NCBI GenBank assembly: GCA_029267355.1
Contig: JAJUJA010000009.1
Coordinates: 1-34,378, forward strand
Direction of reading: 5' to 3'
DNA length: 34,378 nt
DNA from: Elusimicrobiota bacterium
Lineage (GTDB): Bacteria; Elusimicrobiota; Elusimicrobia; Elusimicrobiales; UBA9959
The notes under the pieces are model-generated. The model was not told the origin of the DNA. It ran no database searches and was given only the letters and a program-made list of their open reading frames with translations. Every line of letters begins with the position of its first letter. The first letter of the stretch is position 1. The position numbers and the translations under genes were made by a program. Shown piece after piece: positions 5,797-28,619 of the stretch.

Positions 5797-6666
5797 TTAA
5801 AACTTGAGGCCGGCTGAAAAAGAAAGAAAATTATTTCTGTCGCCGCCGGCTTTATAAGTCTGCCATGAAACGGTGGCGCCGACCATATTGAAATCAAGAT
5901 AAGCTCCAAGCCCGTATGTATTCAAGTCATCAATGTTTGAAAGTTTAAACTTGGTCTTATTATATGAGATGAAGGGCGTAACCATAGGATAGCCGAGAAG
6001 ATCAAGCTTTAGATTGAAATTGGACTTGGGATAGCCGACCACATAAGAGTTCAAACCGGTCAATCTCTGATTCATAGCCAGGCCGGCATTGGCAAGAGTG
6101 AGCGTTTTATCATAGCTTGAAGCCGTATATGAAGCCGAAATCTGAGCCATAAGCACCTTGGCGCCGGCAAACAAAGAAGCGTCCAATTGGCCGATATCTT
6201 TGGAATTTGAAGTATGCGCTGTATAGTTCAAGCCGGCTCCCAAATCTATCTGAGTCACGCCTGAAGCGCTGTGACCGCCGTAGCCGGAATTCGGGCCCGC
6301 CATTCTTGTTTTGCCGCCCGATGTCGGATTAAGCGAAAAGGTTATGTCCGCGCCGGCAAATTTATTTTCATATTTGCCAAGCAGCGTATTTTCAACTTCC
6401 GGAGTAAGGCCTGCGGCAAAAGACAGAGTATAAAGAGACTTTTCAAAGCCTATCCTTGCCGAATATTTTCTGTAAGCGTCAATGCCGTCCGCTTCATAAG
6501 AAGAATACTCCGGTTTCACCCAGAAACCGCCTGTTCCTATTTTGGCATAGGCGTCCTGGCCTTTATAGCCGTCAGTACCGCTGGTATAATTTAAACCCGC
6601 GTCAAAATATGACCAGCCGGCGGCCGAAAAGATAAAAAGAGCCGCGCATACGATTGTTTTTTTCAT
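5797..6666 (-). CDS. Probable outer-membrane beta-barrel protein, unknown function
   Basis: The 289-residue product starts with a signal peptide (two Lys, then a hydrophobic stretch VCAALFIFSAAGWS; cleavage probably around residues 16-20). The rest is made of alternating polar and hydrophobic short strands rich in Gly, Tyr, Asn and Lys, with no internal hydrophobic helix. It ends in Phe (SFSAGLKF), the usual terminal residue for outer-membrane barrels. It is not named because I recognise no family. It begins 9 bases after the deoxyhypusine-synthase-like gene and should share its promoter at 7817-7845. A soluble periplasmic beta-rich protein cannot be excluded. Confidence 0.65.
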   Translation of the reverse strand: MKKTIVCAALFIFSAAGWSYFDAGLNYTSGTDGYKGQDAYAKIGTGGFWVKPEYSSYEADGIDAYRKYSARIGFEKSLYTLSFAAGLTPEVENTLLGKYENKFAGADITFSLNPTSGGKTRMAGPNSGYGGHSASGVTQIDLGAGLNYTAHTSNSKDIGQLDASLFAGAKVLMAQISASYTASSYDKTLTLANAGLAMNQRLTGLNSYVVGYPKSNFNLKLDLLGYPMVTPFISYNKTKFKLSNIDDLNTYGLGAYLDFNMVGATVSWQTYKAGGDRNNFLSFSAGLKF

Positions 6667-6675
6667 TTATCCCCC

Positions 6676-7716
6676 TTAGGCGACCTTAGCCGCTTCTTTG
6701 TTCAGATAATCGCTGAAATTTCTGGCTTTCCTTGTTTTCCAAGCGCCTTTGTGATAACCATATCCTGCTATCAAAGGCATAGCCAAAGTGGCCTCGCTGT
6801 AAACCATCTGCTCATATGTGGTTTCAACTTTACCCCATGATGAAGCTTCCTTAAGCGTTGAGCTTGAAAGAGCCCCGTCTCTAACATCGGCTACAGTAAC
6901 CTGTATGGCATATTTATGCATGGGCGCCTCATAGCCGAGTATATCGGCCGCGACAACCGTGTCCTGAGTAAAGTTCTTGGGCACGCCGCCGCCTATCATA
7001 AAAATGCCCGTGTCTTTGGCGGCTATTTTAAGTTTTGTAAGTTCAAGGAAATCCTTGGCGCTGTCCATGGACATATGCTTATCAGGGTTATTCCATTGAT
7101 GCTCCACCATGCCGAAGCCGGCTGAGCAGTCTGAAAAGGCTGGCACAAATATGGGAACTCTCTTTTCATAGGCAGCCAGAACTACCGACTCCTTGTTTTT
7201 GCCGTGCTTGGAAAGATATCTGCCCATCTCTTCTATAAATTCTCTTGATGAATAAGGTCTCGGCTCAAGCGAATCTGCTATTTTCTTCATGGTTTCATCG
7301 CAAACTCTCAATTCATCTTCGTCTATAAAAGTGTCGTATATTCTGTCTATATGAAGCTCTCTGAGCTCATTGTCATCTATGCCGTGCCACCAGCCCTTAT
7401 AATGCTTGAAGCCCAGGCCTTCAAAGAAATCCTGGTCAACGATAAGCGCTCCTGTTGAGACTATGGCGTCAACCATGTTGTTTTTAACCATATCATAAAC
7501 GACTTTTTTAAGACCGGCTGAGAAAATCGAGCCGGCCAAAGTAAGTATGACCGAACAATTTTTATCTCTAAGCATCATATCGTATATTTTTGACGCTCTG
7601 GCCAAATCTCTGGCAGAGAAAGCCATATCGTCCATGGCCTCAACCATGGCAACGACATTGTGTTTCTTTATATCTATATGCTTTACAACTTCCTTAAGGT
7701 AATCGCTTTTTTTCAT
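6676..7716 (-). CDS. Deoxyhypusine-synthase-like protein
   Basis: This 346-residue protein belongs to the deoxyhypusine synthase family. In eukaryotes and archaea that family transfers an aminobutyl group from spermidine to eIF5A, using NAD and a covalent lysine. Visible marks are VDAIVSTGA (about 82-90), IGGGVPKNF (about 241-249) and SSWGK (292-296), where K296 aligns with the catalytic lysine. Bacteria have no eIF5A, and some bacterial members make homospermidine instead, so the substrate is unknown. The reading frame extends upstream to 7782, but I place the start at 7716 because GGAGG sits five bases before that ATG and the next residues are family-like. Transcription probably begins at the promoter at 7817-7845. 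The beta-barrel gene follows 9 bases downstream. Confidence 0.87.
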   Translation of the reverse strand: MKKSDYLKEVVKHIDIKKHNVVAMVEAMDDMAFSARDLARASKIYDMMLRDKNCSVILTLAGSIFSAGLKKVVYDMVKNNMVDAIVSTGALIVDQDFFEGLGFKHYKGWWHGIDDNELRELHIDRIYDTFIDEDELRVCDETMKKIADSLEPRPYSSREFIEEMGRYLSKHGKNKESVVLAAYEKRVPIFVPAFSDCSAGFGMVEHQWNNPDKHMSMDSAKDFLELTKLKIAAKDTGIFMIGGGVPKNFTQDTVVAADILGYEAPMHKYAIQVTVADVRDGALSSSTLKEASSWGKVETTYEQMVYSEATLAMPLIAGYGYHKGAWKTRKARNFSDYLNKEAAKVA

Positions 7717-7816
7717 TTTTCCTCCATCTAAAGGTGCCTGCCAAATAGTGCGCAGTAGCATTAAGACCCGCAAACAGATCAAATTTAATCCGTGCTGTTA
7801 GTTTGAAAAGTCTATC

Positions 7817-7868: not shown

Positions 7869-7899
7869 AAAAAAGCCCCCGGTAACGGGGGCTTTTTTT
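7869..7899 (-). terminator. Intrinsic terminator ending the A-F cluster
   Basis: A perfect hairpin has a GC core GCCCCCG / CGGGGGC and a GTAA (plus strand) or TTAC (minus strand) loop. It is flanked by six A and seven T, so it can work in both directions. It starts 12 bases after the stop codon of gene F (7912), where a terminator of the minus-strand cluster is expected. Confidence 0.93.
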
Positions 7900-7911: not shown

Positions 7912-10900
7912 TTACTTGTCTCTGCTTGGGTTGCCGCATATAGCGCCAGCCATACCCGGAATCTGATTCCACCCTTCGCTATACGGTATGGTGGTAGTAG
8001 TTCCGTGAGTATAGCCGCCGCCTATTTTACCCCAAGAGGGGCCGACGGACACATTAACATTGAAGGAATCGCTTGTTGCAACCGACTTGCGCACCATCAT
8101 GCTGACATTTGATATTATCCAATTCTTGCCGTCGTACTTACAGTAAAGCTTCAATCCGATGTCAAACACATTATTAAGCATGCCGCTGTATATTTTCTCA
8201 ACATCCCCATTGCCGATTCTCTGAAGAGGATTCGTGTCTATTTCTTCCGGGGCTTGTGACGGATAAATGAGTCCATTAGTATATTCCAGGACAAAAATTT
8301 CCCTGAAAAGCCTGGTTCGGCAGCTGTCTTCACGATTTATAAGCTTGCCGGCCCATATACTGTGACATATGGAGTTCCTCGTAGCGGTGTTATACTGTTT
8401 GCCGGGAGTTTTTTCAAGAGCACTGAAAGTCGGCTCTTCATAACCGGGAAGAGACCAGATATCGCTCCTTTTCTTAAGCACCCATCTCCTGGCAACATAC
8501 ATTGAAGAGACGGTTGAACAGCCTTCCTTCGTCTCATAGCATTTTTTATCTTTGCTCTGATTTGCAGCAGAAGAACTATTATTGCCCGAGTTATTGCCGG
8601 CATTATTTCCGGTATTGTTGCCCGTATTATTTCCTGAATTGTTTCCGGAGTTGTTGCCGGCATTATTACCGGAATTATTTCCGGTATTGTTTGCAGTACT
8701 GTGCGGTCTTGAGGTAATGCCTATTCTCTTTTCTACGCAGGACATATTTATGTCTGAACCGCAAACTTTATCCACGCCGTCGCTTGAAGTTCTCATACCC
8801 TTGCCGTCAAATTTCTTCTGGGCGTCTTCAAACTTCCTTTTTTCTTCATCAAACTGAGACCTTATGGCCTTTTTTTCTTCTTCGGTTTTGGCAGATTCCA
8901 TTTTTACCCTGAGCGAAGTCATATTCCTCTGGGCTGTACGCATTCCCTCTATGGCTTTTATAGCTCCTGCCATCTGGGATTTACAGTTGGCGCTTGTGCA
9001 GTTATTGGCTCTTTGTGCGGCAGAAAGCCTGTTTTCAGACTGTTGAAGCGAGTTATCTACGACCCTCATATCGCCCGAGAGATCATAGGCGTTGGCTGTA
9101 ACAGTGCCTGAATTATTCCCGGCATTATTACCGGAATTATTGCCCGAGTTATTGCCGGCATTATTTCCGGTATTGTTGCCTGAATTATTTCCTGCATTGT
9201 TTCCGGAATTATTGCCCGAGTTATTGCCTGCAGGATTAACTGCAGCATCATCAAAGCCCTCTATACCCATTGACTTAAGCTGCGATTTAAAGCCCTCTAT
9301 CTGACCCTTAAGAACGGCAACTTCCGAGTCAACTTCCTTAAGTTTGTCCCTCATACCGTCCACGTCTTTAGGCAAACTTATAAGAGCTCTTACGCTGGCA
9401 GAGACTATGCTGCTTTTAACTTCAGACTCTCTTGGAGCTTTCTGGCCGGTAAAAAGCTGGGCATAAGGCATATTGGATGTAAGAGACGCTTCTTCGTCTC
9501 TTGCCTTTTTATCCTTTACTTTTTCGCCGTCAAAATGCTCTTTAAGCATATTATCCGGCTTATACTCATCAGGCAATATGCCTCTGGAAATAAAGGCAAA
9601 CTTAACCGGGGAATCGCCCTGTGAAACGGCGCCCTGAGTGGATATGCCGACTATCTTCTCGTATATCTTTCCAAGTTCCTGGCCCTGTTCTATCTGTGAG
9701 GAATATGTGGCCATTTCAGATGCCTTGGTTTCATAACCGGTGCCGAGCTGGCTGGCAGCCGCAAATATTCTTGATTTCTGGGAATTATAGAAGTTCACGG
9801 CATTTCTGTGATACTGCATATCATTAAGCCTTGCCGTAAAACTGCTCTCTATGACCCTGCTTTCAGAAAGCATTTTCTCAAGCTTAGGAGCAAGCTCATC
9901 ATTACCGCCGGCTCTATCCACTTCAGCTGTGCCTTCTTTTGTGCGGACTGTGGATATTCTCTCGCCTTTCTTGGCCTTTTCCAAAGCGGCCTGAAGTTTC
10001 CTGTTGAATTCCTGAACTGCCAAGGTTTCAGTCTTGATCTTGCCCTCAACCTTGCCTATTTCTTCATTGTAAGAAGCGACAACAGTTCCGACTTGAGAAG
10101 AAGTGAGCGAATTTATAGTCCTTGCTATGTTTTTACCCGTGCCGAAGACCTGCGTAAGAAAGCCGGCGCCTGACTTCATATCGTCCTTATCTTTGCCTTT
10201 TGATTCGGCAAAAGCTTCAACAGCCTGTTTTAAGCTTGAGTCATAACTGTCTATTGACTTTTGCAAATCATCCAGAATAGCCGGTGTTATCACTGAGGAA
10301 GAATCCCCGGCTGCGCCGGCATTGGGAGCTCCGCCGGAATTTGAACCGCCGCCATTGCTTGTAACAAATTGTCCGCCTGCGGATATACATTCGCCTATGC
10401 TCATAGGACTTGTTGTGGGGTTATTGTCCTTATTCTTTCCGCCGTATAAAGCCACGGATGAGCCATTCGGGAATTTACAATACCCAATCGGTTTAGGAGG
10501 GGAATAAGGGTTAAGCAACCCGGATATTGAATCGGAAATTTTCTGACTTATGGGTTTTGTGACGCTTTCAACAAGACCTTTGAAGAGGTCCTGCTTCATC
10601 TGTCTCTTAAACTGAGCCCAGCTCTTGGCGTCTTCGCAGGCAAGCTGCGTAGCCAGACTGCCGCGGCAAGGATCCCCGGGACTGTAAGAACCGCTGTTTC
10701 TGGTATTAGACCCGGAAGCCGGCTTTATCTTTTCGCTGTCTGAAACTCCGCCTAAAGCGCCATTGCCTTCGCCCTTAACTGAGGCGGCAGCGGCGTCCTG
10801 TAAAGCTTTAACGGCATTATCGCCTGAAAAGAAACCGGCAGCTTTATCGGCCTGACCTCTGAGTTTTTCAAGCGCGCCTTTGGAAGCGCTGTTTGGAGTA

Positions 10901-11598
10901 TTTGAGGCCACCCCTTTGTAGCCCGGAATTGCCACCGGACCTGCCATAGAGCGTTTCTCGGATTTTTTGGATACGCTTTGAGCGTCAGCTAAAATCTTTC
11001 CGCCGCCCAAATTTCCGCTGGTCCTTGAGCTTTCTCCGCCCGAGAAGAATGAACCCATGCCCCTGAGCGAGCTGGCCAATCTTGAAGAAGGCGTAAAAGG
11101 GGCCGGCGCAGATTTAACGGCTTCAGAGAAAGCTTTGGGAGCGACATCTCTCATTGAATCCCTGAAATTTGAAGGAGGCAATACAGGCGCAGGCGGAGGC
11201 GCTGATTGAGCCCCTACGATAAGCGAAGAAGGATCTCTCGCTGTGAGCGGCACTATAACCTCGCCGGACCCGTCCGGAGAACCGGCGCTAAGAGCATTAA
11301 CGCCTGAATCATAAAGATTGGGCATACCGGAGTCAGAGCCCTTTCTTTCGCCAAATCCGGGAGTGAGCAAATTGTCAGATGACGGCTTGGTCATCATAAA
11401 CTCGGCTATGGGCGCCATAACAAGTATGCTTAAGCCCATACCGACTATGGCCATATCCTTCCTTGAAAGATTTTTCAACCTTTCAAAAAAGGAAGCGGAG
11501 GTCTTGCCGAGATTATTTACCGAAAAACCGGAGGTTTTTTTGGCAAAACTCCCGGCAGCCAGCGTCGGCTTTTCATCGTCTTTCTTATTGAAGTTCAT
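7912..11598 (-). CDS. Gene F: giant membrane-anchored envelope protein with GNN[S/T/A] repeats
   Basis: I do not recognise this 1228-residue protein. It has a charged N-terminal tail, one membrane segment at about 49-66, a Pro/Ser/Gly-rich stretch (about 70-330), a predominantly helical, probably coiled-coil part (about 450-780), an array of ten GNNx units (791-831), a helical part with cysteines, a second ten-unit array (970-1008) and a folded-looking C-terminal part of about 220 residues with several cysteines. The exported part holds 14 cysteines by my count, including DPCRGSLATQLACED, NNCTSANC and KKCYETKEGC, which suggests disulfides outside the cytoplasm. The frame extends to 11652, but GGGAGGAG a few bases before the ATG at 11598 favours that start. 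It is the last gene of the cluster, separated from E by a 307-base spacer. Role unknown; a structural or adhesive envelope component is an inference. Confidence 0.8.
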   Translation of the reverse strand: MNFNKKDDEKPTLAAGSFAKKTSGFSVNNLGKTSASFFERLKNLSRKDMAIVGMGLSILVMAPIAEFMMTKPSSDNLLTPGFGERKGSDSGMPNLYDSGVNALSAGSPDGSGEVIVPLTARDPSSLIVGAQSAPPPAPVLPPSNFRDSMRDVAPKAFSEAVKSAPAPFTPSSRLASSLRGMGSFFSGGESSRTSGNLGGGKILADAQSVSKKSEKRSMAGPVAIPGYKGVASNTPNSASKGALEKLRGQADKAAGFFSGDNAVKALQDAAAASVKGEGNGALGGVSDSEKIKPASGSNTRNSGSYSPGDPCRGSLATQLACEDAKSWAQFKRQMKQDLFKGLVESVTKPISQKISDSISGLLNPYSPPKPIGYCKFPNGSSVALYGGKNKDNNPTTSPMSIGECISAGGQFVTSNGGGSNSGGAPNAGAAGDSSSVITPAILDDLQKSIDSYDSSLKQAVEAFAESKGKDKDDMKSGAGFLTQVFGTGKNIARTINSLTSSQVGTVVASYNEEIGKVEGKIKTETLAVQEFNRKLQAALEKAKKGERISTVRTKEGTAEVDRAGGNDELAPKLEKMLSESRVIESSFTARLNDMQYHRNAVNFYNSQKSRIFAAASQLGTGYETKASEMATYSSQIEQGQELGKIYEKIVGISTQGAVSQGDSPVKFAFISRGILPDEYKPDNMLKEHFDGEKVKDKKARDEEASLTSNMPYAQLFTGQKAPRESEVKSSIVSASVRALISLPKDVDGMRDKLKEVDSEVAVLKGQIEGFKSQLKSMGIEGFDDAAVNPAGNNSGNNSGNNAGNNSGNNTGNNAGNNSGNNSGNNAGNNSGTVTANAYDLSGDMRVVDNSLQQSENRLSAAQRANNCTSANCKSQMAGAIKAIEGMRTAQRNMTSLRVKMESAKTEEEKKAIRSQFDEEKRKFEDAQKKFDGKGMRTSSDGVDKVCGSDINMSCVEKRIGITSRPHSTANNTGNNSGNNAGNNSGNNSGNNTGNNTGNNAGNNSGNNSSSAANQSKDKKCYETKEGCSTVSSMYVARRWVLKKRSDIWSLPGYEEPTFSALEKTPGKQYNTATRNSICHSIWAGKLINREDSCRTRLFREIFVLEYTNGLIYPSQAPEEIDTNPLQRIGNGDVEKIYSGMLNNVFDIGLKLYCKYDGKNWIISNVSMMVRKSVATSDSFNVNVSVGPSWGKIGGGYTHGTTTTIPYSEGWNQIPGMAGAICGNPSRDK
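8575..8691 (-). repeat. Second 12-bp tandem repeat array in gene F
   Basis: Ten tandem units encode [G]NN followed by Ser, Thr or Ala (the first unit lacks its Gly). They occupy residues 970-1008 of gene F in 117 bases. Units vary at third codon positions, so the protein repeat is better conserved than the DNA. A change of one unit would keep the reading frame. Confidence 0.93.
9106..9228 (-). repeat. First 12-bp tandem repeat array in gene F
   Basis: Ten GNN[S/A/T] units plus a final Gly occupy residues 791-831 (123 bases). The array ends a coiled-coil-like region and precedes another helical stretch, so it looks like a flexible Asn/Gly linker. Synonymous differences between units argue against very recent expansion of the whole array. 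Confidence 0.93.
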
Positions 11599-11730
11599 AA
11601 CTCCTCCCGAATATATACTAAAGTTGAGATTAAGAAATAAGTCCTCTGCCAAAACTTATTCTTACATCTCCTTAAAACAAGGGCAAATCTTTTTACTTCA
11701 CCAATACTTTAGCTTATGCCCTTTGAAAAA

Positions 11731-11784
11731 TTAAGTGTCCTTAGTCCCTTTCTAAAATGGGACCTAAGGGCAAAAGACATTTAA
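11731..11784. repeat. Nested inverted repeat upstream of gene F
   Basis: The inner arms CCTTAGTCCC (11739-11748) and GGGACCTAAGG (11759-11769) pair with one bulged base around a 10-base loop. Outer arms TTAAGTGTC (11731-11739) and GACATTTAA (11776-11784) match at 8 of 9 positions. It could be an RNA leader structure or a protein-binding dyad. No T-run follows it. Confidence 0.6.
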
Positions 11785-11798
11785 GCAATTGAGAGAGC

Positions 11799-11890
11799 AA
11801 AAAACAAGCCCGAACAAAGCGGTTACTTCTTCCTCCCCCCACCTCAAAAATCCGCAAACTCCTTTAAGGGGAGCCGCTTCATCCGGGCTC
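11799..11890 (-). terminator. Candidate long terminator or attenuator after gene E
   Basis: On the minus strand, 11890-11874 can pair with 11822-11806 over 16 bases, counting G-U pairs, with AGCCCG/CGGGCT at the base. A run of six T follows immediately (11804-11799, after TG). The loop is about 51 bases and contains a minor hairpin (CTCC/GGAG). The stem and T-run fit an intrinsic terminator, but the loop is unusually long, so attenuation or partial readthrough into F is possible. Confidence 0.6.
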
Positions 11891-11905
11891 AAGATAAACA
11901 AAACA

Positions 11906-13498
11906 TCAACCGCCAACAGTATCCCCCGTCATATCAACAGCGCTGGAACCGTCCTCAGGTCCCCATTTTTTCAAAGCCTCAGAACTTACCCATGAAGCCA
12001 CGCCGACCGCCACCAAGGCCGCGCCTCCGGTGAATACTGCCGCCACTAAACCGGCCACTACCGTAAGTATAGTGCCGATCATACCGCCGACTATCTGGCC
12101 TATTATAAGACCGGCTCCCGCTATTATCAGGCCCACGCCTATGGCAGCGCCTATACCGGCGGTAAATATCGTAAGCAGAGCGCCTATTATTATCAGCAGC
12201 ACTCCAAGTATTATGCCTAGCCAGCATTTCCATTTGGAGCACTTATTGACTCTCATATCGTCATAAGTTTTTCCGCAATCATACTGCTGAGGGCTGGAAT
12301 TCTGACAGGCCGCCCCAAGATTGGCTGAAGCGGTGTTTATTTTCTTGCACAATTCCCTCATCTTCTCAACCACATTGTTGTTGTAATTGTCCACTGCGCC
12401 GTGCTTGCAGCATTTCGGCCTGTCTTTCAGCTTGGGCGCCAATTCTGTCTGTTCTTTCTGGTACTGAGATATTTTGGCGCTTTCAGTCTCATTTGCCTTG
12501 GCGCATTTCTCAGCCATATCAGACCAGGCTCCGGCGCTCGTTAAAAGCCCGCCTGTAAAGCCGGTATCAGGCAAAGATGCAGAACCTTCTGTAGTAACGA
12601 CATCGGCATTGACCTCATTTCCGTCATATGTTGAACCGACATATGAGGCCTGAGTTTCATAGCTAGGGTTCTGCTTATAAGCCGAAGAGGTCATAGTGAA
12701 AGTCTCAGAAGCCTGAAACAAAGCCCTTCTGTTTGAACTTATCCTGACGTCCATGGAAGAGCCCTTTGATCTATAGCCAACATTTTTCCAGCTGAACCCG
12801 GACAGTCTGCCCATTTTTTTGGCACTTCTTATCTTTCCGGTTTTAGGATCTCTCGGTTCGGGTATATTGGCAGAACCGTAAGAAGCATTCAGCATGCCTT
12901 CATTTTTGGACGCGGCGCCGGGACCCGTGATATAGTTCTTGTTCATGTAAGGCCCATAATCCATGCCGCCGCCGGAGCCAAAAGCCATATCGCCCATGCC
13001 CCCCTCGCCCATGGCAAGCATATCCTCAAAGTTCATGGCATCTGCCCCCTGACCCTTGGCTATTTCTTCATCTGAGACAACGCCTTTAACCGGCCCCGCA
13101 TTCTTGCGGGAAATTTTACCCCAATCATCGCCTGCTCTGACCATCCCAACCGTGCCCATTGAGTCAGAGCCGGAACCTCGCGCCGCACCGAAGATTCTCT
13201 GCCACAGTGAGTATTTATCAGAATCTTCGGAAGCCCTTGCCAGAGCGGATTTGACAAGATCTCTTGTGTAGTTAGGGTTTATGCTTGAAAGCACAGAGCC
13301 CAAACCCATACTCTTAAGCAAGGACACCACTGGAGGCAGCTCCAGAAACCTGCCGAGCATATCCCCCGATACGGCGAAAGGCACGGAGAGGGCGACCACA
13401 ACCAATGCGATGGCTATGTATTTCGCCCTGCCCCTGAATATTAAGAGTAAAGCTGCAAGTAAGCTTTTTCTCTTATGCCTTTCAAGAAATTTAGACAT
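11906..13498 (-). CDS. Gene E: membrane-anchored protein with Cys-rich stem and hydrophobic C-terminal bundle
   Basis: I do not recognise this 530-residue protein. It starts with a strongly basic tail and a membrane segment at about 26-44. A long Gly/Ser/Met/Asp-rich exported part follows, containing the shared motif QASYVG at 283-288. Next comes a helical stretch with eight cysteines (about 330-425, including a CC pair). The C terminus (about 426-510) is almost continuously hydrophobic with Gly-zipper spacing, probably three membrane segments, then a short acidic tail. GAGGAG lies seven bases before the ATG at 13498, and the gene follows D by 17 bases. The even number of cysteines just outside the predicted membrane bundle suggests a disulfide-stabilised periplasmic stem. 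It is likely a partner of genes B-D. Confidence 0.78.
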   Translation of the reverse strand: MSKFLERHKRKSLLAALLLIFRGRAKYIAIALVVVALSVPFAVSGDMLGRFLELPPVVSLLKSMGLGSVLSSINPNYTRDLVKSALARASEDSDKYSLWQRIFGAARGSGSDSMGTVGMVRAGDDWGKISRKNAGPVKGVVSDEEIAKGQGADAMNFEDMLAMGEGGMGDMAFGSGGGMDYGPYMNKNYITGPGAASKNEGMLNASYGSANIPEPRDPKTGKIRSAKKMGRLSGFSWKNVGYRSKGSSMDVRISSNRRALFQASETFTMTSSAYKQNPSYETQASYVGSTYDGNEVNADVVTTEGSASLPDTGFTGGLLTSAGAWSDMAEKCAKANETESAKISQYQKEQTELAPKLKDRPKCCKHGAVDNYNNNVVEKMRELCKKINTASANLGAACQNSSPQQYDCGKTYDDMRVNKCSKWKCWLGIILGVLLIIIGALLTIFTAGIGAAIGVGLIIAGAGLIIGQIVGGMIGTILTVVAGLVAAVFTGGAALVAVGVASWVSSEALKKWGPEDGSSAVDMTGDTVGG

Positions 13499-13515
13499 AA
13501 AGTCTCCTCAGGGGT

Positions 13516-15009
13516 TTACTTGCACTCCCCTTTATCCTTATCCCAGGTCTTGCCCTGCTTATAGCATTCTGTGGCCTTTTTTTCATAGTCTTTCATGGCA
13601 GACCCCGCAGCCATAGAACCCAAAAGCGCAAGTATGGCGGCAGCACCGGCAAAATAGGACACATATCCGGCAGCGCCTGCAGACCATTGCCCCGCCATAG
13701 CCAAACCTGCCGCTGCAGCGGCGGCAACCCCGGCTATGAGATATATGGTTCCAAGTTTCGCCTGGCCGTATTTACCCATAAGATCTATGGCTGACATTAT
13801 GACTTTTATGGCAAGCAGCAATGCAGCTATACACATAATCCAGCCGGCAATCATCAAGGCTATACCCCACCAGCCGCCTGCGCTTTTGCCGGCCTGAACA
13901 AGCAATGAACCTGCATAAGCCAAACCGGCAGCCAGCATCAGGTACATAAGAGCCTGATCCAGCATATTGCCCCATGGATTGTCTATATCATAGCCGGTGG
14001 TATCCGGGTAAGAGTAATCCCCTGCTCCTCCGCCGCCGGGAGTGACATCATTAAGCGAACTGGGCGTTTCAACAATTCCGGCTCCGCCATTACTCAAACC
14101 TTCCCCTCCAAGGCCTGTAGTTCCTTCACTGGTAGTGCCTTCCCAGGCGGCATCGCTTGTGGCCCTGAGAGTATCAGAGTTTCCTCCCTGATAGCTTCTC
14201 ATGGTGTTTTTTATGGCCTGAGCTCTGCCCAAAGATTTGCCTGCATCTCCCTTCTTCACGCTTATTCCCGAGGCCTTTGATACGCCGAATTTTTTGGAGT
14301 TCATGGCAAGCAGCTTATTCTTCCTGTCCTGGAACTTGGGCAAATTGCTGAAACCGCTGCCCATATTGCTGAATCCCACCTTAGGCCCAAATGTTCCCGG
14401 CTTACTGCCGAAGCCGCCCAAAGCGCTGAATTTATTGCCGCTTCCAATATCGCCTGAAAGCCCTATCTGAGCCGCGCCTTGGAGCTGGGCATTCATTTCA
14501 TCCTGCGCCTCCGGCTGTTCTCCGGCATTGGCGTCTGATGAAGCCTGCTCTTCGGCCGGTTTTTCATCCTTGGCCGCCGGCTGCTGTTCATCAAGAGATA
14601 CCTTGCCCTTATTGGCCTCTTTGAACATATCCAGAGATGAGGCGTTCTTCTGTTCTCTCAGTATAGCTGGCACATAGTCAAGATTCCTGTTCTTTACCGC
14701 CTGAGAGGAATCTCCCATAGCCGCGCTGTTTGCTGGAGCGGCATCTCTGGCGCTCTTCATATAAAATACCGTACCCACGCTCAAGGCCACCACGGCCATA
14801 GGGACAAGAACCGACGCCTTGGCAGCCAAAGCCGCAAAAAGCCCCGGTTTAGCCGCGCCTATGCGGCCGATATTTATGGCGCCCTGGGATGGCAAATTAC
14901 CCATGGACGCGGAGCGGCCGAAGCCCAACCGCTGTTTAAGCCAGGGCAAAAAGCCCTTGCGTTCCTTCTTCTTCTGGAAGTTTATCTCGGGCAAATCTTT
15001 GTTTTCCAT
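13516..15009 (-). CDS. Gene D: paralogue of C, N-anchored protein with C-terminal four-helix membrane region
   Basis: This 497-residue protein of unknown family has the same plan as gene C. A basic tail carries RKGFLPW at about 17-23, a membrane segment follows at about 64-84, then ASSLDMFK at 123-130, a long Gly/Ala/Gln/Ser-rich part, and the shared DAAWEG motif at 286-291. From about 358 there are four hydrophobic segments (near 363-381, 389-412, 430-447 and 455-475). With five membrane segments and a cytoplasmic N terminus, the 25-residue charged tail with two cysteines would lie outside the cytoplasm. The ATG at 15009 follows GGAGGG, 25 bases after C. It is probably an ancient paralogue of C; the function is unknown. 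Confidence 0.8.
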   Translation of the reverse strand: MENKDLPEINFQKKKERKGFLPWLKQRLGFGRSASMGNLPSQGAINIGRIGAAKPGLFAALAAKASVLVPMAVVALSVGTVFYMKSARDAAPANSAAMGDSSQAVKNRNLDYVPAILREQKNASSLDMFKEANKGKVSLDEQQPAAKDEKPAEEQASSDANAGEQPEAQDEMNAQLQGAAQIGLSGDIGSGNKFSALGGFGSKPGTFGPKVGFSNMGSGFSNLPKFQDRKNKLLAMNSKKFGVSKASGISVKKGDAGKSLGRAQAIKNTMRSYQGGNSDTLRATSDAAWEGTTSEGTTGLGGEGLSNGGAGIVETPSSLNDVTPGGGGAGDYSYPDTTGYDIDNPWGNMLDQALMYLMLAAGLAYAGSLLVQAGKSAGGWWGIALMIAGWIMCIAALLLAIKVIMSAIDLMGKYGQAKLGTIYLIAGVAAAAAAGLAMAGQWSAGAAGYVSYFAGAAAILALLGSMAAGSAMKDYEKKATECYKQGKTWDKDKGECK

Positions 15010-15034
15010 AAGCCCTCCATCTAATCCAAGTCAA

Positions 15035-16369
15035 TTACCAGCCCACACCAACAAGCTTGCCCCAAAAATTATCGGCCATATTCTTCAAGCCCGATACAGC
15101 ATCCTTTGCCGTAATATTGCTGTTCACGGCAGACAAGGCTTGTATGGCAGCGTATATTATGCCGGCTCCAACCAGCATATACATTATCGCTGACCATTTC
15201 TGCTGATATTTGCTGTACATCTGCCAGCCAAGATACATCTCATAAAGAGCAGTTCCTATTGCGGCATAGGCCATAACAATGGCGGCCATCTGCGCATAAG
15301 GGTTCTTCCACTTGGCCAGCAAGGTTGCGGCTGCAACAAGCCCTGCAGCTATGAGTATGGTATTGAATATCCTGTCCTCAAGATCTTTCCAAGGGCTGTC
15401 AACCTCTTTGTTTTCCGGAGTAGGCGGCTGATATTCATTCGTGTTTATATTGGGGTCATTGGCCTTAAGCTTGGCGCCATCGCTGACTCCGGCTCCGCCT
15501 ATACCAGTGCCGCCTGTGGGAGTGGCCACATCGCCCGACCCGGCAGTCTCGCCGGTGAAAGCAGCCTCAGCCGCGCTTCTGGCCCCCGAATCTGAAGCTG
15601 AATAAGCGGCTTTTTGACCCACCTTGCCGGCATATTTGGCCTGACCGAAAGAGCCGCTTCTCTTTATATTGGGCACTGTATATTTCGGAGAGTTCTTTAT
15701 ATTGGAGGCCAAAGCGCCCTTCATTGAAGAGGCTGAACCGGCTGAGGAAAGATTAGCCATGCCGCCCATGGGAGAAAACTGCTTTTTTCCCATATTTCCA
15801 AAAAAGCCGCCTGAGGTTTGAAGCTTGCCGCCTGAAGTGCCTGAGCCGCCTCCTTTGGAGTTATTAAAACCAAGCGAGGCGTTCAATTTTCCTGCGTCTG
15901 CGCCTGCAGCGGCGGCATCAGCCGAAGCGGCAGGAGCTTCAGCAGCCGGAGCTTGAGATGAAGCCGCCTCTTCTGATTTTACCTCGCTTTCATCGCCGGC
16001 GAGGCCTTCCTTTTTAGCCTGCTCCCTGAACATATCAAGAGAAGAAGCCGATTCCCCGGCCATATTGCGCACGCCTTCCCTCTCTATGCTGGCTTTTTTT
16101 GCCTGCTCCTGATAATAAGCATTCTGAAAAAGATCGGCAGTATAAACCTTACCGGAAGAAGGCCCGATGAGGTTATAGACAACACCCACCCCGGCCGCTA
16201 TGGTAGCGCCCCCTAAAATCACGCCCAGAAGACCGGCTTTGCTTGAAAAAAGGCCGGCCGCGCCCGCGGCTCTCCCCATTGAAGAAGCCCCTTTGGCTCC
16301 TCCCGAGAAAACCCGGCTTATAAAGGGCAGAAAGCCCTTTTTGTTTTCTTCTTCCCTGTTAAAGCTCAT
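15035..16369 (-). CDS. Gene C: paralogue of D, N-anchored protein with C-terminal three-helix membrane region
   Basis: This 444-residue unknown protein starts with an acidic/basic tail containing KKGFLPF at about 10-16, then a membrane segment at about 46-68. ASSLDMFRE is at 108-116. An Ala/Glu/Gly-rich exported stretch with SGGKLQTSGGFFG follows, then the shared EAAFTG motif at 268-273. Three hydrophobic segments lie near 334-353, 361-383 and 393-412, followed by a 30-residue tail. It contains no cysteine. The frame extends to 16414, overlapping B, but GGGAGG four bases before the ATG at 16369 makes that start much better and leaves 13 bases after B. The layout and motifs match D despite low overall similarity. 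Confidence 0.8.
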   Translation of the reverse strand: MSFNREEENKKGFLPFISRVFSGGAKGASSMGRAAGAAGLFSSKAGLLGVILGGATIAAGVGVVYNLIGPSSGKVYTADLFQNAYYQEQAKKASIEREGVRNMAGESASSLDMFREQAKKEGLAGDESEVKSEEAASSQAPAAEAPAASADAAAAGADAGKLNASLGFNNSKGGGSGTSGGKLQTSGGFFGNMGKKQFSPMGGMANLSSAGSASSMKGALASNIKNSPKYTVPNIKRSGSFGQAKYAGKVGQKAAYSASDSGARSAAEAAFTGETAGSGDVATPTGGTGIGGAGVSDGAKLKANDPNINTNEYQPPTPENKEVDSPWKDLEDRIFNTILIAAGLVAAATLLAKWKNPYAQMAAIVMAYAAIGTALYEMYLGWQMYSKYQQKWSAIMYMLVGAGIIYAAIQALSAVNSNITAKDAVSGLKNMADNFWGKLVGVGW

Positions 16370-16382
16370 ATAACCTCCCTGT

Positions 16383-17354
16383 CTATTTGCCGCTGTTTCC
16401 TTTCTTACCGCCAAGACTTCCGGTAATAGCGCCTGAAATCGCTCCGCCTATACCGCTGAAAACTGCGCCAACCGTTGCCTGTATTATCATCTGCATAAGC
16501 ATCTTCTTCATTTCCTCATCGCTGTTGTCAACTTCCATTTCTTTCGGTTCCGGAAGCTTTATTTCCTTTTTAGTCAGGCTCGGATCGTTCTTTTTCATCG
16601 AGGTATCCACTTTGCCGAGCTGAGTGCCTGCTTCCGCAAACTTTTGCTCCGCTTCGGTTACAAGCTTTGAATCATCCGCCTTCACTGAAGCCCCGAAGGC
16701 CTGTGAAGCGGAATTTCTTGCATCGTTTAAATTGGGGCTATTGGCCGCCTTAACGCTTTGCTCCTGAGCATTTTTGAGAGACGCTAAAAGCGCCTGACCT
16801 TTCTCGCTCTTCGGTTTTATATCGCTCAAATCAGAAGGCTTAAAGTCCGCCTTGGCGTTCTCCTGGCCGAAGAACTTATTGTGTGTTCCGCCGACTGTGT
16901 TAGTATTTGAGTTGCCCGCAGTAAGGGACGGCAAAACGCTGAGTTTTCCCTTGGGCACAGAGCCATAGTTTGAGCCGGGATTGGCATCAGGCACAGGCAC
17001 ATTTCCATCAGCTGTTGAATTAGCCGCCCCGGCTGCAGATTCATCCTGAACCGTTTCAGATGAGTCGCCGCTTGAAAAAAGAGACGAGGCAGCCATATCC
17101 AAAGCTGTGGCCGGGTTATCTATCAGTTCGCCGCTCAAAGGCGCCCCCGGAGCATCAGCCCCGGCGCCATCGGCAAGAAGAGATAAATCAGCTGATTTCT
17201 TAGAGAAAGAACCGCCGTAAATTGGAGATGATGAAGAACCGGTCTTATTCATAAGAGGCAAAGAAACCCACATAAAAAGAATAAGGAAGGCCACAACTGA
17301 GCCTACTATATACTGCGTCTTCTTAGGTTTCTTGGCTGTCACTATAGTTTTCAT
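16383..17354 (-). CDS. Gene B: N-anchored low-complexity protein with glycine-zipper C terminus
   Basis: This 323-residue protein has no family I recognise. It has a Lys-rich tail, a membrane segment at about 15-35, a Ser/Ala/Gly/Asp-rich exported stretch with TALDMAASSLF (weakly like the SSLDMF motif of C and D), a helical Lys/Ala/Glu-rich part (about 180-280) and a final hydrophobic segment at about 290-315. That last segment has repeated GxxxG-like spacing (VFSGIGGAISGAITGSLGG), as in glycine-zipper helices that pack or oligomerise in membranes. It has no cysteine. GAGGG lies four bases before the ATG at 17354. It is the first gene after the near-consensus promoter at 17423-17451. Confidence 0.78.
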   Translation of the reverse strand: MKTIVTAKKPKKTQYIVGSVVAFLILFMWVSLPLMNKTGSSSSPIYGGSFSKKSADLSLLADGAGADAPGAPLSGELIDNPATALDMAASSLFSSGDSSETVQDESAAGAANSTADGNVPVPDANPGSNYGSVPKGKLSVLPSLTAGNSNTNTVGGTHNKFFGQENAKADFKPSDLSDIKPKSEKGQALLASLKNAQEQSVKAANSPNLNDARNSASQAFGASVKADDSKLVTEAEQKFAEAGTQLGKVDTSMKKNDPSLTKKEIKLPEPKEMEVDNSDEEMKKMLMQMIIQATVGAVFSGIGGAISGAITGSLGGKKGNSGK

Positions 17355-17422
17355 AAGCCCTCAAAAATAAACTTCTGCTTCCTCCGATACATTCCCTGTT
17401 CGAAGCGAAGCGTTATACAAAT

Positions 17423-17451
17423 GTTATAGCAGACCCCCCTGGCTGTGTCAA
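17423..17451 (-). promoter_or_regulatory. Near-consensus sigma70 promoter for genes B-E
   Basis: On the minus strand, a perfect TTGACA (17451-17446) and TATAAC (17428-17423, 5 of 6) are 17 bases apart, with a TGC extended -10 directly upstream. It starts 10 bases before the gene A stop codon and would initiate near 17416, giving a leader of about 60 bases to gene B. It is the strongest promoter I see in the window, which suggests high expression. Confidence 0.85.
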
Positions 17452-17460
17452 GACCCAAAA

Positions 17461-18630
17461 TCACTGATTAGGCAAACTTCTGCATCCGAGGAAATCGCAG
17501 CCGTAGACGACCACTTGATTATCCTTTTGGGCCACTATCAAAGTGTCCCCGTTTGAGTACTTGGCCGCCATTACATCTCCGCTGAGACTCACCTGATTGC
17601 ACAAATCGCCCAGTTCCGAGCATGATATGCTGCTGCTTTTCACCACATCTTCATTGGGATACAATTTATATTTATCCACGGCGCTGTCAAATGTTTCCCT
17701 GGCCTTTTTCTGCAATTCGTCTTCTTCTTCACCATCCTGGGAGTTAGAATTGCTCATGGCCCCGCCAAGACCTGAAAACATGGAATTAACCATACCCTTG
17801 GCCATGTCCTTTTTCATCTGATTGGCAAGACTGTCCTTGACCTTATCATCGGCTCCGCTGTTTGGATTATCCGTTTTAGGCTCGCCCGGCTCAGGCGCAT
17901 GAAGACCGCCTGTTTCTGCCGCTTTGAGATCCACAACCTCGCCTCTTATTTTGTCAAGCTTGGTAACCGCATCCGAATATTTGCCCTGCTTGGATCCGCC
18001 CATACCGCCTACAAAGCTTTGGTCCCACTTGAATTTGGCCTGTGAGGCGGAACCGCTTCTAAGGCCTTCTTTTATATTTGCCCCCATGTGATCAAGTCTT
18101 GAAAGAAGCTTTTGCGATTGAGGACTCTTGCCGGCATTCTGAAGAGATGAACCGGTTACGGTCAGGCCGCCCGAAGCCCCTCCGCCGGAAAAGCCGCCCG
18201 AAGCGCCCTGAGTTTTAGTGCCTGAACCGCCGGCGGAAGAAAGACCTCCTGAAATTGAGGACTTTATTTTTTCGGATGGGACGTAAGGAGAAGCAGATGA
18301 CAGCGAAGCCGTTTTAGGATAAAGTTTTTCCGCCTTTTCCTCAGGAGTAAGATTTGAGTCTTCCAAAGCGGCGTCAGGAAAAATTTTCTTTTCAAGCTCC
18401 CTGACAAATTTGGTTATGGCAGGGTCTATCTTTTCGCCGTCAACAAAACCCGTTGTTTTAAGAAGAGCAAACATCGCTTTTTTGGGAAATGAAGAATATT
18501 CAAAGGAGAAGCCGGGCCTGTCCTTAAGGTCTTCCACTCCTTTCATCATAAAAAATACCGACACGCTTCCCCCGAGCAGAAGGAAAACCAGCATTGATAC
18601 TATGAAAACCTTCCTTTTACTGTTGTTCAT
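17461..18630 (-). CDS. Gene A: N-anchored envelope protein with small Cys-containing C-terminal domain
   Basis: This 389-residue protein belongs to no family I recognise. It has a short basic tail, a membrane segment at about 8-28, a helical membrane-proximal part, a Gly/Ser-rich stretch (about 125-165, with SGGFSGGGASGG), a second helical part containing QSFVGGMGG (loosely like the aromatic-glycine motif of C-E), an acidic patch (DGEEEDE) and a C-terminal domain of about 70 residues with four cysteines (SCSELGDLC and CDFLGC). The frame extends to 18777, but that start lies upstream of the promoter at 18709-18737. The ATG at 18630, behind GGGG, fits better. It is separately promoted from B-F, and could be a regulated partner or a minor subunit. 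Confidence 0.78.
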   Translation of the reverse strand: MNNSKRKVFIVSMLVFLLLGGSVSVFFMMKGVEDLKDRPGFSFEYSSFPKKAMFALLKTTGFVDGEKIDPAITKFVRELEKKIFPDAALEDSNLTPEEKAEKLYPKTASLSSASPYVPSEKIKSSISGGLSSAGGSGTKTQGASGGFSGGGASGGLTVTGSSLQNAGKSPQSQKLLSRLDHMGANIKEGLRSGSASQAKFKWDQSFVGGMGGSKQGKYSDAVTKLDKIRGEVVDLKAAETGGLHAPEPGEPKTDNPNSGADDKVKDSLANQMKKDMAKGMVNSMFSGLGGAMSNSNSQDGEEEDELQKKARETFDSAVDKYKLYPNEDVVKSSSISCSELGDLCNQVSLSGDVMAAKYSNGDTLIVAQKDNQVVVYGCDFLGCRSLPNQ

Positions 18631-26474: not shown

Positions 26475-28619
26475 TTATTTGCTTGTCAGGTTAAATACAC
26501 CGTCAAAGCTTTCCTCTCCCCTGATAATGCGGCCGCAAAGCTCAAGGTAAAAGGCAGAAGGACCGTCTTTCGGGTCTGCCTCAATTGCAGCCTTAAAACA
26601 TTTGCCTGCCTTTTCATAGTCCTTATTATAGAAATATTTAATGCCCTTTTCATATTCAGCGTAAAGAGGCAGTGATTCCTTGCCTTCGCTCAAAAGGCCG
26701 GCCGGCTCATAAACATCCACCGGCAGAGCCTTGCCGACAACTCTTATTGAGCCGAGAAATCTGGCGTATATTTCGTCTTTAGCCTCTTCATATACATCCC
26801 TGCTCACCATGATTTTGGAATGAAAGAACTTATTGGCCCCTTCCAGCCTTGAGGCAAGGTTTACATTGTCGCCGAGAACCGTGTAGGCAAATCTTGTGTT
26901 TGAACCCATATTGCCCACTACCATAGGTCCAGAGTTTATGCCTACCCTCACGCTTATACGCTCATTTTCGCTTACGGTTTTGTTTAACTCTTCCACTTTT
27001 TTTATGCAGTCAATGGCGGTTTTGCAGGCCAGCGTCCTGTGTTTTTGCTGATCAAGCGGAGCGTTCCAGAAAGCCATTATGCAGTCGCCTATATATTTGT
27101 CCACTACGCCGTCATGTTTGTGCACAATTTCCGTAAGCTCTGAAAGATAATAGTTCAGCTTTTTGGTAAGATCCTCAGGGCTCAGTCTTTCGCTCATAGT
27201 GGTAAAGCCGGCTATATCCATATAAAAAACCGTCATATCGCGCCTTTCGCCGCCCAGAACGAGCTTTGAAGGGTCCTGAGTTATTATCTCAACGACCTTA
27301 GGCGAGAGATACTGTGAAAAAGTGTTTTTTATCCATTTCTTTTCCCTGCCTTCAACTATTGACTTGTACGCCATCACATACATGTATGACACCAGCAAGC
27401 CGACAAAATAAGGCATAAAATCCATATCCCAGTTTTTCTTCAATGAAAGAACGCTTAAAGCGCCGATAAAAAAAGCTGCGGCAATGACGGACCATGTTAT
27501 AGTTTTGATTTTCCTGGGCTGAAGAATTATCGGGAGCCAGACGGCAGATATCAGCAAAGAAAATCTGAACCACAAACTTACAGGCCTTAAATAATCCCCT
27601 TTCATTAAATTATCTATCAATGTGGCATGAAACTCCACTCCGGGAGTCAAAGGACTGAAAGGGTTTGGATAATGGTCAAAGGCGGCTGTGGCGGTTGCGC
27701 CTATGAGAACTATGCCGTCCTTCAGGGCCTCTTTCTCCTCAGGGGAAAGTTTGTCCTCTATAATGTCAGCTGCCGAAATATGCCTGAAAGGAGAATAATA
27801 AAGGCCATCTTCTTTTCCTTCAAACTCTTTTCTGCCGCGATGCTTGTACCTGTCCTTAGGAACTCTGAATTTTAGTCTCAATGTTTTATCCATCCATTCA
27901 GATGAAAGAACGTCCAGAGGCAAATCAGAATATACGGCATATGCTGCAAGACCGAGCAAAGGTATTCCGGAACTTTCCGCGCCATCGCGTTTTTTTGCGC
28001 CTAATTTCTCAAGGTCTTTATAGAGCAATACTTTCTGTTTATCGGGAGAATCTAAAAAATACGGAGGATAAAACGGATTCATCCTCCTTATATGTCCGTC
28101 GCTGTCCATGTGCGTATCAGCATGCGGCTGGGCCATATAGAGACTGTTTTCCATTATTCCTTTTATAGGTTTCTTAATCTCAAGATTTTCTATTGTAAGC
28201 AGATTTATTGTTCTTGCATATTTTTTCAGCGCCGAAATCAGGGCGGCGTCATTCTCTGGATTATCCCTGTCTTTATCAAAAAACAGCACGTCAAAACCCA
28301 CAACTTTGACCTTATACTTTTCAAGATTGGCCAGAAGCGGAGCATAGTATCTTCTCTTGAACGGCCAGCCGTATTTTTGAGTGCTGAATTCGTCTATGGC
28401 CACTATGCTTATCTTTGAATCGGCTTCCAGGGCGAGGCCCAGAGAATCAGCTATGCCCGCAAAGGCCGGAGCTACAAACTTAAAATCAGACCATTTTCTT
28501 TCAAGAGAGCGGAGAGGGTTCAGATAGTCCCCCAGAAAAATAGAAAATATCAGCAGAAAAAATGTCCACGGTATGCCGAACTTCATTAAGGTTTTCAATT
28601 CGCTTTTTTTATTAATCAT
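26475..28619 (-). CDS. CHASE2-domain class III adenylate/guanylate cyclase
   Basis: This 714-residue membrane cyclase has an N-terminal membrane helix (about 14-30), an extracytoplasmic CHASE2 sensor (about 40-345, including ISIVAIDEFSTQKYGWPFKR and GFDVLFFDKD), three membrane helices (about 350-367, 373-392, 401-418) and a cytoplasmic class III cyclase domain (about 455-650). The two metal-binding Asp are D468 (FYMDIAGFT) and D512 (YIGDCIMAFW). A Lys in VDKYIGD and Asp in TVLGDNVNLASRLE fit an active adenylate cyclase, so cAMP is the likely product. The last 50 residues look like a TPR-type helical pair. GGGGAG precedes the ATG; it lies 9 bases after the histidine kinase. No cAMP-binding regulator is in the window. 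Confidence 0.93.
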   Translation of the reverse strand: MINKKSELKTLMKFGIPWTFFLLIFSIFLGDYLNPLRSLERKWSDFKFVAPAFAGIADSLGLALEADSKISIVAIDEFSTQKYGWPFKRRYYAPLLANLEKYKVKVVGFDVLFFDKDRDNPENDAALISALKKYARTINLLTIENLEIKKPIKGIMENSLYMAQPHADTHMDSDGHIRRMNPFYPPYFLDSPDKQKVLLYKDLEKLGAKKRDGAESSGIPLLGLAAYAVYSDLPLDVLSSEWMDKTLRLKFRVPKDRYKHRGRKEFEGKEDGLYYSPFRHISAADIIEDKLSPEEKEALKDGIVLIGATATAAFDHYPNPFSPLTPGVEFHATLIDNLMKGDYLRPVSLWFRFSLLISAVWLPIILQPRKIKTITWSVIAAAFFIGALSVLSLKKNWDMDFMPYFVGLLVSYMYVMAYKSIVEGREKKWIKNTFSQYLSPKVVEIITQDPSKLVLGGERRDMTVFYMDIAGFTTMSERLSPEDLTKKLNYYLSELTEIVHKHDGVVDKYIGDCIMAFWNAPLDQQKHRTLACKTAIDCIKKVEELNKTVSENERISVRVGINSGPMVVGNMGSNTRFAYTVLGDNVNLASRLEGANKFFHSKIMVSRDVYEEAKDEIYARFLGSIRVVGKALPVDVYEPAGLLSEGKESLPLYAEYEKGIKYFYNKDYEKAGKCFKAAIEADPKDGPSAFYLELCGRIIRGEESFDGVFNLTSK

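What the first reader, a model, noticed from the sequence alone, without database searches (positions are those of the whole stretch)
7912..18630. Six-gene cluster of unrecognised membrane-anchored envelope proteins (A-F)
Six consecutive large genes share one plan: a short, usually basic cytoplasmic tail, one membrane segment close to the N terminus, a long Gly/Ser/Ala/Asn-rich exported stretch, and a different C-terminal module in each. I recognise no known secretion, pilus, S-layer or conjugation component. One terminator, two good promoters and tight spacing from B to E argue for a coordinated assembly. My hypothesis is a large multi-subunit envelope structure in which C, D and E form the membrane base, B adds a glycine-zipper helix, and F is a long fibre or spanning component. 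The function itself is open.
Basis: partly seen in the sequence, partly recalled or inferred. Interest (0 to 1): 0.9.

Follow-up and report, generated by a model that had tools for sequence, protein, structure and literature searches.

The report
Tad-pilus-linked envelope complex with swappable tip
Six neighbouring genes in an uncultured Elusimicrobia bacterium encode membrane-anchored proteins of no known family; related genomes place them beside the genes of a Tad-type pilus, and the longest one has an outer end that is exchanged between close relatives, so the set most likely forms an undescribed pilus-associated contact structure.

Summary
Six large genes (A-F, minus strand, 7912-18630) encode Gly/Ser/Ala/Asn-rich proteins with an N-terminal membrane anchor and match no family in Pfam, NCBIfam or PHROGs. 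The order A-B-C-D-E-F is conserved across their family of Elusimicrobiales. Two details change: A-D share a homologous exported region and C and D are full-length paralogues, so the C-terminal modules are not all different; and the promoters are not above chance.

Divergent versions occur across the class Elusimicrobia. In three other families they follow TadE-like minor-pilin genes, and in two of these the same contig carries a Tad/Flp pilus locus. Of 119 genomes with C or F, 112 carry the Tad ATPase. In the window's own family an A paralogue sits beside the Tad minor pilins.

F is modular: 390 conserved N-terminal residues, then a distal part that is unrelated even between congeners 87% identical in the N-terminus.

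Best explanation: an Elusimicrobia-specific accessory complex of a Tad-type pilus, with F as its exchangeable recognition end. The Tad link rests on genomic context; assembly and function are inferred. No Tad gene was found in this MAG itself, probably through incompleteness.

The parts
17461..18630 (-). gene A, 389 aa: bitopic; N-tail of 6-7 residues, TM at about 7-25, Gly/Ser-rich stretch, domain shared with B and C, variable C-terminal end with 4 Cys
   Evidence: a paralogue of A lies directly after TadE2 in the Tad locus of family f1
16383..17354 (-). gene B, 323 aa: TM at about 11-35, long disordered stretch, helical region, C-terminal glycine-zipper-like helix
   Evidence: AlphaFold mean pLDDT 52, confident mainly in the TM helix
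15035..16369 (-). gene C, 444 aa: basic N-tail, TM at about 35-53, shared exported domain, C-terminal TM segments; full-length paralogue of D
13516..15009 (-). gene D, 497 aa: same plan as C, with four C-terminal TM segments
11906..13498 (-). gene E, 530 aa: N-terminal TM, long exported stretch, conserved Cys-rich segment, then C-terminal TM region
7912..11598 (-). gene F, 1228 aa: N-terminal anchor module plus long distal part
10429..11598 (-). conserved N-terminal module of F (about 390 aa, TM at 51-69; 51 invariant residues in 14 sequences)
   Evidence: 378 of 378 pairs of 28 proteins match
7915..10428 (-). hypervariable distal part of F: helical middle, Asn/Gly repeat linkers, Cys-containing beta-rich end
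   Evidence: only 43 of 378 pairs match in the last 220 aa; abrupt loss of similarity after residue 393 between congeners; weak AlphaFold model of the end (pLDDT 64), no PDB match
9105..9232 (-). 12/36-bp tandem repeat encoding a (G-N-N-S/A/T)n linker of F
8577..8691 (-). 12/36-bp tandem repeat encoding a second (G-N-N-S/A/T)n linker of F
7869..7898 (-). strong intrinsic terminator after F
   Evidence: 13-bp stem, T run

Best explanation
A-F are an Elusimicrobia-specific accessory complex of a Tad/Flp-type (type IVc) pilus machine. A-D are diverged paralogues and, with E, sit in the inner membrane, C-E by several helices, with long flexible stretches and Cys-rich or helical parts in the periplasm. 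F is anchored in the same complex by its conserved 390-residue N-terminal module and carries a long distal part that is replaced as a cassette between related species. The most likely working: the complex forms a platform around the TadG/TadE-like minor pilins and presents F, through or beside the Tad secretin, as a cell-surface contact element whose outer end determines what is bound. Shown by sequence: the conserved order, the paralogy of A-D, the proximity to Tad genes in other families, co-occurrence with Tad, and the modular replacement in F. Inferred: physical assembly with the Tad machine, surface exposure of F, and a role in contact or adhesion.
For: Conserved order in the family. Homologues across the class: C in 87 and the F N-module in 110 of 341 phylum genomes. 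In f2 (G112:C10, G056:C7, G067:C31) and f15 (G214:C19, G230:C41) the B-F-type genes follow TadG/TadE-like minor-pilin genes on contigs that also carry a Tad locus; in f14 (G190:C88) a TadE-like gene again lies upstream, with the Tad core on another contig. The core was identified by Pfam in the same-genus genome G002: TadE 8e-11, RcpC 1e-14, secretin 1.5e-42, CbiA + T2SSE 1.8e-63, two T2SSF proteins, with ATPase and secretin alignable in six loci of f1, f2 and f15. 112 of 119 genomes with C or F have that ATPase, against 113 of 222 without. In the window's own family an A-family protein directly follows TadE2 (E 1.3e-13 and 3.4e-8 in L227 and L231, 4.9e-13 in L228). F: N-module 378/378 pairs, last 220 aa 43/378; L204/L207 87% identical over residues 1-393 and then no match; L038/L206 nucleotide similarity stops inside F and resumes at 83% downstream; within genera A-E are 44-70% and the F N-module 65-71% identical, the F distal part 25-48%.
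Against: In the window's family the cluster is not inside the Tad locus, and in this MAG no Tad gene was found (TadE, TadB/C, ATPase, only low-scoring secretins, no TadG2). None of A-F resembles a canonical Tad protein and none shows a prepilin-type G-x4-E motif in its first TM by inspection. Families f10 and f11 have a similar ATPase but no detectable C or F, and most gut Elusimicrobiaceae versions score too low for the profiles. Co-occurrence partly reflects shared ancestry. No structure or experiment ties the proteins to the pilus.
Confidence: 0.66

Rival explanations
1. A stand-alone envelope or adhesion complex that merely lies near the Tad locus in some families; it works without the pilus machine as a membrane-anchored, periplasm-spanning or surface fibre.
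For: The cluster is away from the Tad locus in the family f1 and no Tad gene was found in this MAG; no canonical Tad homology.
Against: Proximity to TadE-like minor-pilin genes in f2, f14 and f15, an A paralogue at the Tad locus in f1, and 112/119 co-occurrence.
Confidence: 0.18
2. F is a polymorphic secreted effector: the conserved N-module is a delivery signal, the exchanged end is the active part, and A-E form the export apparatus, perhaps driven by the Tad ATPase.
For: Sharp conserved-N/variable-C architecture with replacement between conserved flanks; several F-like hits in one genome, e.g. three on G184:C41.
Against: No toxin or effector family match; no immunity-like gene after F, which is followed by a strong terminator and conserved housekeeping genes.
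Confidence: 0.1
3. Remnant of a phage-like or other mobile structure.
For: Weak tape-measure hit of E (PHROG 58, E 2.9e-5), probably compositional.
Against: No other phage genes nearby; conservation of order next to DHS and DnaX over a whole family.
Confidence: 0.02

Closest known systems
Tad/Flp (type IVc) pilus loci: TadZ, TadA, TadB, TadC, secretin, RcpC, TadD, TadE, TadG
   Same: Module B-F lies next to Tad minor-pilin genes in three families and in the same genomes as the Tad ATPase; inner-membrane proteins with exported parts
   Different: A-F have no detectable sequence relationship to canonical Tad proteins and no prepilin motif, and form a separate operon in the window's family. Tad systems had been noted in Elusimicrobia (PMC6668835) but I found no description of this module
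Kil pilus Tip complexes of Myxococcus (KilL/M/N; PMC12075869)
   Same: Tad-linked proteins in which a conserved base carries a variable distal domain; several paralogous sets in one genome
   Different: KilL/M/N are minor pilins (TadE/F/G homologues) with a predicted prepilin cleavage site and pilin-like fold; F shows no such site. The TadG2/TadE2 pair next to the module is the likelier counterpart of a Tip
Type IV pilus alignment complex (PilN/PilO/PilP), from general knowledge, not tested
   Same: Several inner-membrane proteins with a short cytoplasmic tail, one TM and a periplasmic part, linking platform and secretin
   Different: No homology seen; A-F are largely Gly/Ser/Ala-rich and C-E are polytopic

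Membership tests
Tad/Flp (type IVc) pilus system component | Encoded in or beside a tad locus | tested here: met
   Met in f2 and f15 (same contig as the Tad core) and, beside a TadE-like gene only, in f14; not met for the window itself, whose family keeps the Tad locus on another contig
Tad/Flp (type IVc) pilus system component | Genomes with the module also carry the Tad motor | tested here: met
   112 of 119 for the ATPase; two of the seven exceptions (G015, G134) have TadG2; in G000 no Tad gene was found
Tad/Flp (type IVc) pilus system component | Homology to a canonical Tad protein | tested here: not met
   No Pfam or NCBIfam match of A-F to a Tad family
Tad/Flp (type IVc) pilus system component | Needed for, or physically part of, the pilus machine | not testable with these tools
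   Needs deletion or pull-down in a cultured member
Tad minor pilin / Kil Tip protein | Prepilin peptidase site (G-x4-E) before a hydrophobic helix | tested here: not met
   Absent by inspection in alignments of all six families; present by inspection in the neighbouring TadE2
Tad minor pilin / Kil Tip protein | Conserved base with an exchangeable distal domain | tested here: met
   F
Tad minor pilin / Kil Tip protein | Pilin fold | tested here: inconclusive
   AlphaFold of B low confidence; distal end of F pLDDT 64, no PDB match
Type IV secretion / conjugation (VirB10, TrbI) | Homology to VirB10/TrbI or another conjugation protein | tested here: not met
   Only a 9.7-bit TrbI hit for A (E 0.98)

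The most novel reading that the evidence does not exclude
A class-wide, previously undescribed contact apparatus of Elusimicrobia: a Tad-type machine with its own multi-subunit envelope platform (A-E) that displays a giant non-pilin fibre (F) whose distal recognition end is swapped as a cassette between species, similar in logic to Kil pilus tips but built from unrelated proteins.
Probability: 0.35. Interest if true: 0.82.

Novelty: new variant of a known kind. Interest (0 to 1): 0.64.

Why it matters
I found no description, in the papers searched, of a non-pilin accessory complex of this size linked to Tad pili. If the link is right, a whole bacterial class carries an extended Tad machine, six protein families without any annotation gain a testable role, and F gives a natural record of how a contact protein changes its outer end while its anchor stays fixed.

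Tried and rejected
Pfam, NCBIfam and PHROG scans of A-F and PDB profile searches of D, E and parts of F gave only weak, composition-driven hits (TrbI 9.7 bits for A, FliH on low-complexity parts of F, tape measure for E, Spore_III_AB for B): rejected. A, B and C were not searched against the PDB. AlphaFold of B gave a mostly disordered model (pLDDT 52) that was not searched further; the end of F gave pLDDT 64 and no Foldseek match in the PDB (best E 0.55). Considered and dropped: conjugation or type IV secretion, phage remnant, pilins proper. Promoter predictions were not above chance. One alignment call failed on wrong coordinates. Literature searches on Elusimicrobia with Tad found only a remark that Tad systems occur there; a search on Elusimicrobium minutum and pili found nothing relevant.

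Full report
1. The observation. Each has a short basic N-tail, a membrane segment near the N terminus and a long stretch rich in Gly, Ser, Ala and Asn (36-49% after the first TM; the other 19 window proteins average 27.5% overall). B to E are separated by 13-25 nt, A-B by about 105 and E-F by 307. A terminator with a 13-bp stem follows F (7898-7869); promoter-like sites are no more frequent than in shuffles. No family in Pfam, NCBIfam or PHROGs is a credible relative of A-F, and PDB profile searches of D, E, the F N-module and the F end found none; A, B and C were not searched there. The surroundings are ordinary: NAD kinase, ComEC, RecR, DnaX and a deoxyhypusine-synthase-family protein on one side, a HAD phosphatase and hut genes on the other.

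2. Where it comes from and how far it is conserved. The window is contig C40 of a 1.93-Mb MAG. The public relatives found with C are nearly all titled Elusimicrobia, Elusimicrobium or Elusimicrobiales; a few are titled only 'bacterium'. In the window's family (f1) the complete order A-B-C-D-E-F is present in 11 contigs including the window (one of them with interrupted frames), B-F in three more; the rest are split or cut by contig ends, apart from one with a duplicated C (first map). The DHS-family gene is found in ten of these loci. One insertion occurs: a radical-SAM-like gene between D and E in L035 (my reading of the sequence).

3. The six proteins are not six independent inventions. Profile-profile comparison links A to B (95%, E 3.5e-8), B to C (97%, E 5.8e-10) and C to D over their full length (100%, E 5.5e-41); A to C is weak (44%). 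The same comparisons with one profile reversed gave at most 27%, and with columns shuffled at most 0.3%. E and F did not join them reliably: the D-E match at 90% covers only C-terminal hydrophobic segments.

4. The link to a Tad pilus. Searching 341 genomes of the phylum finds C in 87 and the N-module of F in 110, spread over several families of the class. Reading the diverged loci showed TadE-like and TadG-like genes directly upstream of the cluster in f2 (L117, L119; a TadE-like C-terminal end in L120, by inspection). The Pfam scores of these neighbours are individually weak (TadE 18.3 and 21.9 bits, cut-off 22.9); the call rests on the motif and on their place in a Tad locus. Genome-wide searches for TadE and T2SSF in 23 genomes then placed a Tad core on the same contig in G112, G056 and G067 (f2) and in G214 and G230 (f15); the gene maps read TadE, RcpC, secretin, TadZ-TadA, TadB, TadC, TPR protein, regulators, TadG2, TadE2, then the module (for f2 and G214; G230 by coordinates only). 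In f14 (G190:C88) a TadE-like gene lies upstream of the module but the Tad core is on another contig. Pfam identification of the core was done on the same-genus genome G002 (RcpC 1.3e-14, secretin 1.5e-42, CbiA plus T2SSE 1.8e-63, two T2SSF, TadE 8.3e-11); the ATPase and secretin of six loci from f1, f2 and f15 align well.

Co-occurrence: of 119 genomes with C or F, 112 have this TadZ-TadA ATPase; of the 222 others, 113 have it. Relatedness inflates the formal significance, so I use the number only as consistency. Of the seven exceptions, G015 and G134 do have TadG2. In the window's own MAG no Tad ATPase, TadE, TadB/C or TadG2 was found, and its secretins score only like the non-Tad ones of a relative. 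Both same-genus genomes have the ATPase, so a missing contig is the likely reason, but loss is not excluded.

In f1 the module has separated from the Tad locus, yet an A-family protein still sits directly after TadE2 there (L227 E 1.3e-13, L231 3.4e-8; the same position by coordinates in L228, 4.9e-13, and weakly in L181). This ties the family of A to the Tad locus inside the window's own family.

5. F is a modular protein. Among 28 F proteins of f1, all 378 pairs match in the first 390 residues but only 43 in the last 220, which fall into eight groups without BLAST links between them. Non-detection is not proof of non-homology, and some of the beta-rich ends may be remotely related, but the contrast is abrupt: L204 and L207, same genus, are 87% identical over residues 1-393 with no match after; L038 and L206 are 82% identical in DNA up to the same region, then unalignable in DNA, then 83% identical again downstream of F, although their proteins still align to about residue 744. 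Within five genera A-E are 44-70% identical and the F N-module 65-71%, the distal part 25-48%. This is what replacement or very fast change of a distal part looks like; for a surface element it suggests a changing partner. The end of the window's F is predicted, with low confidence, as mixed and beta-rich and has no PDB counterpart. B is mostly disordered in its model.

6. Mechanism and membership. I propose that A-E form an inner-membrane and periplasmic platform linked to the Tad machine and its TadG2/TadE2 pair, and that F is displayed as the contact end. Context, paralogy, co-occurrence and modularity are shown; the physical assembly, the path of F across the outer membrane and the contact function are inferred. 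By sequence the proteins are not members of any canonical Tad family and are not prepilins. They work, at most, with a Tad pilus; the logic of an exchangeable end is shared with the Kil Tips of Myxococcus (PMC12075869), which are minor pilins. Tad systems in Elusimicrobia were noted before (PMC6668835); I found no description of this module in the library searched.

7. Verdict. Real, conserved, unannotated, and now attached to a known kind of machine: a new variant of a known kind, with a real chance of being a distinct contact apparatus.

Noticed in passing
window 6676-7782: Deoxyhypusine-synthase-family protein (Pfam DS, E 3.5e-95) in a bacterium, conserved downstream of the cluster at 82-96% identity in relatives.
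   Followed up: partly
window 5797-6666: 289-aa protein without any Pfam or NCBIfam match, conserved between the DHS-family gene and dnaX in relatives.
   Followed up: no
L187:4364-6577, L184:6023-8338: The Tad ATPase of these Elusimicrobia is a single TadZ-TadA fusion (MinD/CbiA-like domain plus T2SSE).
   Followed up: partly
L234:1827-3434, L232:1942-3537, L233:1930-3564, L190:4381-6012: Another unannotated conserved membrane protein of about 530-565 aa (motif RRYI.G.N.AS.PW) directly after TadE2 in f1 and f15.
   Followed up: partly
G184:C41 (L126 covers part): Three F-like hits and a C-like gene on one 234-kb contig of a 4.6-Mb genome: possible expansion of the system.
   Followed up: no
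L035:11424-12791: Radical-SAM/B12-type protein (by inspection) inserted between D and E in one genome.
   Followed up: no
L117, L118, L119, L120, L185: Host-associated, small-genome relatives (f2) carry strongly diverged versions of the module, some with small extra ORFs between the large genes.
   Followed up: partly
window 26475-28619: CHASE2-adenylate cyclase next to a sensor histidine kinase (28629-30608).
   Followed up: no
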